Below are positions 36,801 to 39,800 of a DNA stretch of 64,000 bases, in pieces (positions within the stretch are counted from its first letter, which is position 1; every line of letters starts with the position of its first letter). Origin of the DNA: Saccharomonospora piscinae (lineage in GTDB: Bacteria > Actinomycetota > Actinomycetes > Mycobacteriales > Pseudonocardiaceae). The translations under genes were made by a program, and so were the position numbers. The stretch lies in contig NZ_VCEK01000004.1 of the NCBI RefSeq assembly GCF_005862235.1, positions 695,869 through 759,868 on the forward strand, given 5' to 3'. Under the pieces are notes generated by a model. It ran no database searches, was not told where the DNA came from, and saw nothing but the letters and a program-made list of their open reading frames with translations.

Positions 36801-39800
36801 GGGTTCGCCTCCGACGGCCGGTGCAAGTCGTTCTCCGACTCCGCCGACGGCACCGGGTGGAGCGAGGGCGCCGGAATGCTGCTCGTCGAGCGGCTGTCCG
36901 ACGCGCAGCGCAACGGGCGCCGGATTCTCGCGGTGGTCCGGGGCACGGCGGTCAACTCCGACGGCGCGTCGAACGGGCTGACGGCCCCCAACGGGCCGTC
37001 GCAGCAGCGGGTCATCCGCGAGGCGCTCGCGGCCGCCGACCTCAGGCCGAGCCAGGTGGACGCGGTCGAGGGCCACGGCACCGGCACGGTGCTCGGCGAC
37101 CCGATCGAGGCGCAGGCCGTGCTGGCGACCTACGGGCAGGACCGGCCCGCCGACCGGCCGGTGTACCTGGGCTCGATCAAGTCGAACATCGGGCACGCCC
37201 AGGCCGCCGCCGGGGTCGCCGGGGTGATCAAGATGGTCCTCGCGTTGCGGTACGGGATGCTCCCGCGCAGCCTGCACCTCGACTCGCCCTCGTCCAAGGT
37301 GGACTGGTCGAGTGGTGCCGTGTCGTTGCTGGACGAGCGGACTCCGTGGCCGGAGACCGGTGAACCGAGGCGGGCCGCGGTGTCGTCGTTCGGGATCAGC
37401 GGCACCAACGCGCACGTCGTGCTCGAACAGGCACCCGCCGGTGCCGTCCCGGCCGCGGACGAGCCGACCGACCCCGGCGGGCCCGTCCCGTTCGTGCTGT
37501 CGGGCAAGACGGCGGACGCCCTGCGGGAGCAGGCCGTCCGGCTGCGCGCGTACCTCGACGACCACACCGATCTCGCGCTCGCCGATCTCGGGCTGTCACT
37601 GGCCACCACCAGGACCAGGCTGGAGCACCGAGGGATCGTCGTCGCGGAGGACCGGCCCGCCCTGCTGCGCGGGCTCGACGAGCTCGCGGACGGCGGCGAG
37701 TCGGCCGACGTCGTCGTCGGCTCCGCGCGCTCGGCCGTGAAGCCGGTCTTCGTGTTCCCCGGTCAGGGCTCGCAGTGGCCGGAGATGGCCACGGCCCTGC
37801 TCGATGCCTCGGAGTCGTTCCGCGACGAGCTGTTCGCGTGCGACGAAGCGCTGTCCCGGCACATCGGCTGGTCGGTACTCGACGTGCTGCGCGGCCTGCC
37901 GTCCGCGCCGCCGCTCGAACGCATCGACGTGGTGCAGCCCGCCCTGTTCGCGGTCATGGTGTCACTGGCCGCGATGTGGCGCAGCCACGGCGTCGAGCCC
38001 GCGGCCGTCGTCGGCACGAGCCAGGGCGAGGCCGCGGCCGCGTACGTGGCCGGCGCGCTGTCGCTGGACGACGCGGCACGGGTGATCGCCTGCCGCAGCC
38101 GGGTCGTGGCCGACCGGCTGGCGCACCAGGGCGGCATCGTCTCGCTCGCGCTGCCGGTCGCGCAGGCCGAGCAGCTGCTCGCGGAATGGGACGGCAGGCT
38201 GACGCTCGCCGGGTTCAACGCGCCGTCGTTGCTCAACGTCGCGGGTGACGAACAGGCTCTGGCCGAGCTGATGCGGCGTTGCGAGTCCGATGACGTCCGC
38301 GCGCGGCGGGTCGCCGACATTCCCACTCACAGCGCCCGGGTCGACGGCCTGCGGGACGAGTTGCTCGACGTGCTCGAGCCGGTGCGCCCGGCCTCCGGGA
38401 ACGTACCGATCTATTCCACGGCCCGGGGCGAGCTCGTCGACGGCGCCGAACTCGACGCGAATTACTGGTTCGACAACCTCCGGGAGCCGGTCCACTACGA
38501 GCAGGTCACGCGGACGCTGCTGGGCGAGGGACACCGGCTCTTCGTCGAGGTCAGCCCCCATCCGGTGCTGACCATGCCCACCGAGCAGACGATCGGGCAC
38601 GCGGGCGCCGAGGCCGTCGTGACCGGAACGCTGCGCCGTGACGAGGGTGGCCTGCGGCGCTTCCTCACGTCGTTGGCGACCGGCCACGCGCACGGCGCGG
38701 CCGTCGACTGGCGCGCGACGCTGGCCGGGCGCGGCGCGCGCGAGGTGGAGCTGCCGACGTATGCCTTCCAGAACCGGCGGTACTGGTTGCCCGTCCCGGC
38801 CACGTCCGTCGGCGACATGGCCTCGATCGGGCTCGGCGCCACCGACCACCCCATGCTGGTCGCCGGGGTGCCGCTGGCCGACACGGACGGTTTCCTGTTC
38901 ACCGGCAGGCTCTCCTCCCGGACGCAGCCGTGGCTCGCGCAGCACGGTGTCAAGGGCACGATCGTGGTCCCGGGAACGGGATTCGTCGAGATGGCGCTGC
39001 GCGCGGGCAGGCAGCTCGGTTGCGACGTGCTCGACGAACTGACCCTGGAGGCGCCGCTGACGCTGTCCGAGGGCTCGGGCGCGCAGCTGCAGCTCGTGGT
39101 CGACGCGCCGGACGAGGCCGGGCGGCGCCCGTTCACGGTGTATTCCCGGCCGGCCGACGTGGAGTACGACCAGATCTGGCTGCGGCACGCCGCCGGTGTG
39201 CTGCGGACCGCTCAGCCCACCGACCCGGCGGGCTCCGACCTCACCGTGTGGCCTCCGGCCGGAGCGGTTCCGATCGAGCTCGACGGCGCCTACGACGACG
39301 CCGCCAAGCTCGGCTTCGACTACGGGCCGCTGTTCCGGGGAATGCGGGCGGCCTGGCAGCGCGGCGAGGACGTGTTCGCGGAGGTCGCGCTGCCCGAGGA
39401 CGGGCGCTCCGACGCCGGGGAGTTCGGCCTGCACCCCGCGCTGTTCGACGGCGCGTTGCAGGCGAGCGGGCTCGACGAGTTCCGCGCGGGCAAGGCGAGC
39501 GAGGACGACGACAACAAGCCCCGCATGCCGTTCGCGTGGCGCGGGGTGCGGATGCACGCGCTCGGCGCCACCGAACTGCGCGTGCGGCTCTCGCCGTCCG
39601 GTCCGGGCGGCATCGGGTTCACGATCGCCGACGCGACCGGTGCGCCCGTGGCGGACGTGGAGTCGCTCGTGCTCCGGCCCGTGGAGCCCGAGCAGCTCAG
39701 GGCGGCGGGCAACGGGCAACGCGACTCGCTGTTCCAGGTGGAGTGGACGGGGGTCGCGGTCTCGGCCGAGTCCGTGCCGGGGCAGCGCTGGGCGGTGCTC

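What the first reader, a model, noticed from the sequence alone, without database searches (positions are those of the whole stretch)
37740..38650. Module I acyltransferase has GTSQGE and IPTH instead of the canonical motifs
Thr replaces the near-invariant His before the catalytic Ser, and the specificity motif is IPTH with one residue missing just upstream. Nearby blocks are also unlike the sister ATs (AGFNAPSLLNVAG against [13 protein letters not shown]). The nucleophile Ser and catalytic His remain, so it is probably active but with an unassigned extender, perhaps larger or oxygenated. This is the best candidate in the window for unusual building-block chemistry.
Basis: partly seen in the sequence, partly recalled or inferred. 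Interest (0 to 1): 0.7.

Follow-up and report, generated by a model that had tools for sequence, protein, structure and literature searches.

The report
Unusual acyltransferase in giant macrolide synthase
One building-block-selecting domain in a very large antibiotic-making enzyme line has altered active-site motifs that are kept in two other bacteria but not in related quinolidomicin-type lines, and genes for an oxygen-bearing building block lie close by, so it may add that unit, though which unit it loads is not settled.

Summary
The acyltransferase (AT) at window 37749-38696 has GTSQGE and IPTHS with catalytic Ser and His intact. It is the only GTSQGE domain among 34 AT stretches of a 33-module, TE-terminated PKS of quinolidomicin type with AHBA-type starter genes, and sits in module 29. 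Orthologous PKSs of Actinoalloteichus caeruleus and Actinoplanes sp. DH11 share GTSQGE and xPTH there. Six Micromonospora lines with the same order of modules 28-33 have ordinary GHSQGE/YASH at module 29. All three PKSs with the odd AT have a complete five-gene methoxymalonyl-ACP cassette 3-8 kb past the PKS end; the six Micromonospora lines have none within 11-17 kb. Methoxymalonyl is therefore my leading guess, but open. AT5 of the same PKS (DFAAH) fits methoxymalonyl better; xPTH is already known in FkbB AT4 (allyl/ethylmalonyl); phylogeny does not place AT29; a crotonyl-CoA carboxylase is lacking in two of three genomes, yet an acyl-CoA carboxylase beta gene lies near two of three clusters; and ATs 30-33 also fail to match their Micromonospora counterparts best, so AT turnover here is general. 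Verdict: genuine, conserved, a new variant of a known kind, extender unassigned.

The parts
30852..41657 (+). PKS gene with modules 28 (KS-AT-DH-KR-ACP, malonyl-type AT) and 29 (the module in question)
36195..37280 (+). KS of module 29, active site [11 protein letters not shown]
   Evidence: best match is the same-position KS in 6 of 6 Micromonospora 3' ends with full-length domains (70.2-71.5%), 5 of 6 when fragments count
37749..38696 (+). AT of module 29 (the finding)
   Evidence: orthologues L050 (68%) and L051 (61%)
38013..38030 (+). nucleophile motif GTSQGE (Thr for the usual His)
38208..38246 (+).
38319..38333 (+). IPTHS in place of YASHS, catalytic His kept, one residue shorter just upstream
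38847..39683 (+). DH of module 29, HGVKGTIVVP and PALFDGALQ present
40332..40868 (+). KR of module 29, B-type LDD and the catalytic-Tyr motif GYSAANAF present
   Evidence: best match is the same-position KR in 6 of 6 Micromonospora 3' ends
41196..41393 (+). ACP of module 29 (GFDSL)

Best explanation
This is an intact propionate-type AT in module 29 of a quinolidomicin-type 33-module PKS, at a place where six Micromonospora lines have an ordinary methylmalonyl-type AT (shown by comparison). Its selectivity site has I, A or G where methylmalonyl ATs have Tyr, and Thr just before both catalytic residues; I infer a pocket for a C2 substituent other than methyl. I infer that the unit is methoxymalonyl, passed on from the stand-alone ACP of the five-gene cassette beside the PKS, and that after KR and DH action it leaves an alpha-methoxy enoyl unit (by co-linearity at C10-C11 of the product).
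For: Shown: all three PKSs with GTSQGE/xPTH at module 29 have a complete cassette (OMT, FkbH, acyl-CoA dehydrogenase, ACP, 3-hydroxyacyl-CoA dehydrogenase) about 3, 8 and 3 kb past the PKS end. Six Micromonospora 3' ends with the same order of modules 28-33 have GHSQGE/YASH at module 29 (6 of 6) and no cassette gene up to 11-17 kb past the PKS end. FkbH matches TIGR01686 at 362 bits against a cut-off of 146.65. CCR is below cut-off in two of the three genomes, one of them a draft. Smaller residues at this motif are called typical of ATs for exotic alkylmalonyl units (PMC6490886, passages).
Against: The cassette has another likely customer, AT5 (DFAAH), present in all three clusters. AT29 is not in the DFAAH clade of the free trees, though holding the two together is not rejected (p-AU 0.83, and that tree scored 20 log units higher than the free one). 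AT turnover is general: ATs 30-33 also match another Micromonospora AT better than the same-position one in 0 of 6, so the change at AT29 need not be tied to the cassette. FkbH occurs in 20 of 23 compared genomes. The 5' ends and the rest of the Micromonospora genomes were not searched for a cassette. The score against the ansamitocin AT3 structure (218 bits, against 320 for tylosin AT5) says little, since DFAAH ATs too score higher against other AT structures.
Confidence: 0.35

Rival explanations
1. AT29 still loads methylmalonyl-CoA; the motif changes are neutral or compensating drift, and the cassette serves only AT5.
For: Position 29 is methylmalonyl-type in six Micromonospora lines and in three published clusters (PMC8698034 Table 3). 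Exchanging CPTH for VASH in FkbB AT4 did not change its specificity (PMC6090053, passages), so the motif is a poor predictor; MadAVI AT13 shows the reverse mismatch, YASH with a deduced methoxymalonyl unit (PMC7489565, passages). Holding AT29 with Micromonospora AT29 is not rejected (p-AU 0.82).
Against: GTS and PTH are kept in three lineages at 60-70% AT identity while the Tyr position varies I/A/G. The 10 other propionate-type ATs of this PKS all keep GHSQGE, 8 of 10 with YASH. The same-position identity of AT29 (42-44%) is lower than that of the methylmalonyl-type AT30 and AT31 (50-56%).
Confidence: 0.3
2. AT29 loads ethylmalonyl-CoA or another CoA-linked alkylmalonyl unit, as FkbB AT4 does with a CPTH motif.
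For: xPTH is shared with FkbB AT4, an allyl/ethylmalonyl AT. AT29 falls in a group with tylosin AT5 and salinomycin AT9 in three trees (SH-aLRT 82, 80, 78). The own genome has a CCR on another contig, C8:191156. An acyl-CoA carboxylase beta gene (PF01039) lies near the G000 cluster and a homologue (65%) near the G002 cassette; a CCR-independent alkylmalonyl route is cited in PMC6490886 (reference title seen only).
Against: The grouping is not starred and is lost in the 39-row tree, where the ethylmalonyl-like rows close without AT29 (support 93.8). FkbB AT4 groups with its own paralogues (SH-aLRT 99), so the shared PTH looks convergent. No CCR over cut-off in A. caeruleus or in the draft Actinoplanes genome.
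Confidence: 0.25
3. AT29 is inactive or relaxed and its ACP is loaded by a neighbouring AT.
For: The same PKS has a dead AT in module 15 next to a double-AT module, so loading from outside a module is conceivable in this line.
Against: Ser and His are kept in three lineages and the predicted fold is confident, unlike the dead AT15, which has lost its Ser.
Confidence: 0.05

Closest known systems
AT of module 29 in quinolidomicin-type PKSs of Micromonospora (qnmA10)
   Same: Same module position and domain order (malonyl-DH-KR, then this module with DH-KR); same-position KR best in 6 of 6 and KS in 6 of 6 (5 of 6 with fragments).
   Different: Theirs is GHSQGE/YASH; AT identity only 42-44%; no methoxymalonyl cassette up to 11-17 kb past the PKS end.
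FkbB AT4 of FK506/FK520 synthases
   Same: xPTH motif; allyl/ethylmalonyl use was tested for FkbB AT4 (PMC6090053, passages and section 16).
   Different: Keeps GHSQGE; groups with its own paralogues. The G756 cluster used here was identified as FK506/FK520 type from its genes, not from a name.
GTSQGE/VATHC ATs of one other actinobacterial genus (G078, G094, G164, G306, G361)
   Same: GTS plus Thr before the catalytic His.
   Different: Separate clade (with salinomycin AT9 at SH-aLRT 94 and 83); other PKS; no FkbH on the same contig, though these contigs often end near the AT.
DFAAH-type ATs such as AT5 of this PKS
   Same: Same PKS and cassette.
   Different: GHSQGE kept, FAAH motif, separate clade (99%).

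Membership tests
Type I modular PKS acyltransferase (PF00698) | Profile match with catalytic Ser and His | tested here: met
   Two PF00698 stretches in the protein (466.6 bits in all), the best at residues 2299-2617; Ser and His present
Methylmalonyl-CoA AT | GHSQGE at the nucleophile | tested here: not met
   GTSQGE
Methylmalonyl-CoA AT | YASH about 100 residues downstream | tested here: not met
   IPTH
Methylmalonyl-CoA AT | Falls on the propionate-type side of the AT tree, away from malonyl ATs | tested here: met
   SH-aLRT 100 split
Methoxymalonyl-ACP AT | Complete methoxymalonyl-ACP cassette in the cluster | tested here: met
   3 of 3 orthologous clusters
Methoxymalonyl-ACP AT | Motif of presumed methoxymalonyl ATs (F[AGS]AH, or HAGH in FK AT7/AT8) | tested here: not met
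   xPTH; such motifs are called poorly defined in PMC7489565
Methoxymalonyl-ACP AT | Clade with DFAAH ATs | tested here: inconclusive
   Separate in the free trees; union not rejected and scored higher
Methoxymalonyl-ACP AT | Loads methoxymalonyl from ACP | not testable with these tools
   needs an in vitro assay
Ethylmalonyl/alkylmalonyl-CoA AT | CCR in the cluster, or at least in the genome | tested here: inconclusive
   Over cut-off in 1 of 3 genomes, on another contig; CCR-independent routes exist (reference only)
Ethylmalonyl/alkylmalonyl-CoA AT | Clade with tylosin AT5 and salinomycin AT9 | tested here: inconclusive
   SH-aLRT 78-82 in three trees, absent in the fourth
Quinolidomicin-type PKS | CoA-ligase loading module with AHBA-type genes, 33 extension modules, terminal TE, order of modules 28-33 | tested here: met
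   AMP-binding domain at the start; TIGR01454 340.7 bits and a DegT protein; 33 KS; TE; order of modules 28-33 as in 6 of 6 Micromonospora 3' ends, apart from AT29 and AT33 types, no KR detected in the last module of G819 and a split KS in G914. Earlier modules differ in part from PMC8698034 Table 3
Quinolidomicin-type PKS | 60-membered aminoquinone macrolide product | not testable with these tools
   no product data

The most novel reading that the evidence does not exclude
The AT of module 29 was changed together with the gain of an extender cassette, altering one unit of a 33-module giant macrolide line; and the residue before the nucleophile Ser and the residue before the catalytic His form a coupled pair (His with Ser/Phe/Ala/Gly, non-His with Thr) that marks an uncharacterised AT active-site class with its own extender preference.
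Probability: 0.2. Interest if true: 0.6.

Novelty: new variant of a known kind. Interest (0 to 1): 0.4.

Why it matters
If AT29 proves to use methoxymalonyl-ACP or another unusual unit, it adds a sequence type that YASH/HAFH rules do not read, in a family of giant macrolide lines where the counterpart module uses an ordinary AT. The two Thr positions give a concrete, testable pair for extender selectivity, and the matched set of lines with and without the change is a natural comparison for AT-swap engineering.

Tried and rejected
Sequencing error: rejected (all three codon bases differ, two other genomes share the motif). Dead AT: judged unlikely, as above. 'xPTH is unprecedented': rejected, FkbB AT4 has CPTH. 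'GTSQGE marks methoxymalonyl': not borne out as a rule, since the five GTSQGE/VATHC ATs of another genus have no FkbH on the same contig, with the limit that these contigs are short around the AT.

Controls: same-position domain best for AT28 in 4 of 6, AT29 to AT33 in 0 of 6 each; KR28 and KR29 6 of 6, KR30 and KR31 0 of 6, KR32 1 of 6, KR33 5 of 6; KS28 1, KS29 5, KS30 3, KS31 0, KS32 4, KS33 2 of 6. What remains is that AT29 has a lower same-position identity (42-44%) than AT30, AT31 and AT32 (50-56%), while AT33 is a change of type (34-38%). Odds changed for this: best explanation from 0.40 to 0.35, methylmalonyl from 0.25 to 0.30, novel case from 0.25 to 0.20.

Phylogenetic assignment of the extender: four trees, not resolved. 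The AU runs on 39 rows found held trees 20.5 and 22.3 log units better than the free quick tree, so that free tree is not the best one; the AU run on 119 rows did not finish.

Covariation of the two positions: among 325 unique ATs (35 more were cut or lacked aligned Ser/His, 9 were duplicates) Thr directly before the catalytic His occurs in 11, of which 10 lack the GHS His, against 4 of 314 others. Suggestive only: five of the 11 were found by the GTSQGE pattern itself, three are the query and its two orthologues, FkbB AT4 is an exception, and the tree-based pair test is not significant (median p 0.25).

Survey of ATs within about 30 kb of 12 further FkbH loci: DFSAH (G017b), DFAAH and DFASH (G766a, no OMT found), DAAGHT (G003b), a divergent HPTHT with GQSIGE (G766b), only ordinary or unread motifs (G003a, G011, G018, G702), fragments (G008), no AT in reach (G015, G006); the FkbH of G017a is distant. 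In G756: DFAGH three times and DFAAH once beside cassettes, plus the FK506/FK520-type cluster. DFAGH and DFVAH rows lie outside the DFAAH clade, and, with motif columns kept, AT5 itself lies outside that clade.

Two genera chosen by guess were not the one sought (TIGR01454 over cut-off in 0 of 40); the right one was reached through a named locus. Literature: 0 papers hold 'GTSQGE' with acyltransferase and extender unit; 0 hold Actinoalloteichus with 3-amino-5-hydroxybenzoic acid and polyketide. 'pdb_via' was not available. The model's coordinates could not be read, so no active-site distances. A motif table from a wrong reference row was replaced.

Full report
Observation. The AT domain lies at window 37749-38696 in ORF 30852-41657 and reads VVGTSQGEAAAAY, AGFNAPSLLNVAG and VADIPTHSARV. 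Catalytic Ser and His are intact. Compared with YASH ATs there is one residue fewer before the motif.

Setting. The window is C6:695869-759868 of a 4.90 Mb, 11-contig genome. The PKS runs from C6:579645 to 757442 with 33 KS domains and 34 AT stretches. It starts with an AMP-binding (CoA-ligase) domain, has AHBA-type genes upstream (TIGR01454 fusion at 577772, DegT at 572989) and ends in a thioesterase. Counting KS domains, the AT is in module 29 of 33. The published quinolidomicin cluster also has 33 extension modules, CoA-ligase loading and a terminal TE, with malonyl-DH-KR and methylmalonyl-DH-KR at modules 28 and 29 (PMC8698034, Table 3 read). A review says that quinolidomicin A1 carries an amino group on its quinone after revision (PMC9054317, passage), which fits AHBA-type genes. 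Earlier modules differ in part from that table.

Conservation. Of 73 related loci from named genomes, two have GTSQGE with PTH: A. caeruleus DSM 43889 (68% identity) and Actinoplanes sp. DH11 (61%). Both sit at the same gene position of an orthologous PKS. AHBA-type genes were found at the far end of the A. caeruleus cluster and, in Actinoplanes, on another contig that I take for the far end. Module 29 of the window has intact KS, DH, KR and ACP motifs. AlphaFold gives mean pLDDT 86, core mostly 95 or more; nearest solved structures are lasalocid Lsd14, tylosin AT5 and salinomycin ATs.

Comparison with Micromonospora. In 121 genomes of the genus of Micromonospora sp. ATCC 39149, 40 had matches to KS29-AT29 at E 1e-280 or better (seven candidates per genome were scored). 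I fetched the 3' ends of six. A six-frame scan shows the same order of modules 28-33 in 6 of 6, apart from no KR detected in the last module of G819 and a split KS in G914, and AT29 is GHSQGE/YASH in 6 of 6. KR29 matches the same-position domain best in 6 of 6, KS29 in 6 of 6 with full-length domains and 5 of 6 with fragments, DH29 in 4 of 6. AT29 matches its counterpart at 42-44% and best in 0 of 6; its best match is 53-56%. But AT30, AT31, AT32 and AT33 are also best in 0 of 6, and the Micromonospora ATs 27, 29, 30 and 31 form one tight clade, as after gene conversion. So AT turnover is general in these lines, the side that changed cannot be told, and AT29 stands out only by its lower identity and its motifs.

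Supply genes. I found no extender genes in the window. 554 bases beyond its end begins a five-gene set: O-methyltransferase C6:760422-761084, FkbH 761094-762158, acyl-CoA dehydrogenase 762190-763338, ACP 763331-763702, 3-hydroxyacyl-CoA dehydrogenase 763612-764568. Homologues of all five lie together in both orthologous clusters and in a FK506/FK520-type cluster of G756. None is found in the six Micromonospora 3' ends, which reach 11.4-16.8 kb past the PKS (the same queries hit in the positive controls). CCR is over cut-off only in the own genome, on contig C8. An acyl-CoA carboxylase beta gene lies beside the AHBA genes in G000, with a homologue near the G002 cassette and none in the G001 stretches that I held.

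The other unusual AT. AT5 is DFAAH (C6:615296), with counterparts in A. caeruleus (81%) and in G002 (67%, on another contig; a second DFAAH AT at 62%). With motif columns left out it groups at SH-aLRT 99 with DFAAH, DFPAH, DFSAH and DFASH ATs, all from genomes with FkbH; one YASH row, AT31 of this PKS, falls inside. With motif columns kept, AT5 instead groups with AT31 and its relatives, outside that clade, and DFAGH and DFVAH rows lie elsewhere. A review gives FAAH for an antiSMASH-predicted methoxymalonate AT (PMC8944477, passages). FK AT8, methoxymalonate-loading by the AT review (PMC6164871, passages), reads HAGH here (AT7 likewise, its specificity recalled). AT5 is thus the safer methoxymalonyl candidate; whether AT29 shares its substrate is open.

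Phylogeny. AT29 and its two orthologues are one clade (SH-aLRT 99-100). A group with tylosin AT5 and salinomycin AT9 has 82 (168 rows), 80 (120 rows, motif columns removed) and 78 (119 rows), but in 39 rows the ethylmalonyl-like rows close without AT29. Holding AT29 with DFAAH ATs or with Micromonospora AT29 is not rejected (p-AU 0.83 and 0.82), and both held trees scored better than the free quick tree.

Active-site pair. Among 325 unique ATs, Thr directly before the catalytic His occurs in 11, and 10 of these lack the His of GHS; of the other 314, four lack it. Sources are this clade, another genus, a Myxococcota MAG (GLSQGE/CATH) and a divergent AT (GQSIGE/HPTH) beside a complete cassette. 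FkbB AT4 (GHSQGE/CPTH) is the exception. Sampling is biased and the tree-aware test is not significant. In FkbB AT4 changing CPTH to VASH left activities unchanged (PMC6090053, passages), so the motif may mark a lineage rather than set the substrate.

Conclusion. The feature is genuine and conserved. The most likely extender is methoxymalonyl (0.35), then methylmalonyl (0.30) and a CoA-linked ethyl/alkylmalonyl (0.25). By co-linearity (inference) the substituent would sit at C10, next to a C10-C11 double bond.

Noticed in passing
own genome C6:638140-677019 (L035-L037), modules 15 and 16; G001 gene C1:1228908-1243844: Module 15 has a shortened AT without catalytic Ser (ADGIGT; GDGVGA in A. caeruleus), and the next module has two tandem ATs with intact motifs; the pair is present in both species, so the spare AT may load the AT-null module.
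   Followed up: partly
own genome C6:788482-792539 and C6:798180-802161 (contig end), C11, C8:191156-216455: A second complete methoxymalonyl cassette beside another PKS start; contigs C8 and C11 hold ATs of DFPAH and DAAGHT type and a CCR, which may belong to one further cluster.
   Followed up: partly
L287:16180-17760, G766 C2:438180-453484: A 527-aa divergent AT protein (GQSIGE, HPTHT; PF00698 the only family listed) is the only AT found in the 60 kb around a complete methoxymalonyl cassette, next to an SDR-KS protein; it recalls galbonolide synthases (recall only).
   Followed up: partly
own genome C6:615296 (L034:15296-16240): AT5 with DFAAHS, outside the window, with counterparts in two other clusters, is the better-precedented methoxymalonyl AT of this line.
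   Followed up: yes
own genome C6:766590-767630 (L042:6593-7630): A sulfotransferase-family gene lies 2 kb from the methoxymalonyl cassette; a homologue (42%) lies 14 kb from FkbH in G702.
   Followed up: no
own genome C6:571316-572761; G002 C224:260740-262152: Acyl-CoA carboxylase beta gene near two of three clusters; it may raise a CoA-linked extender pool.
   Followed up: partly
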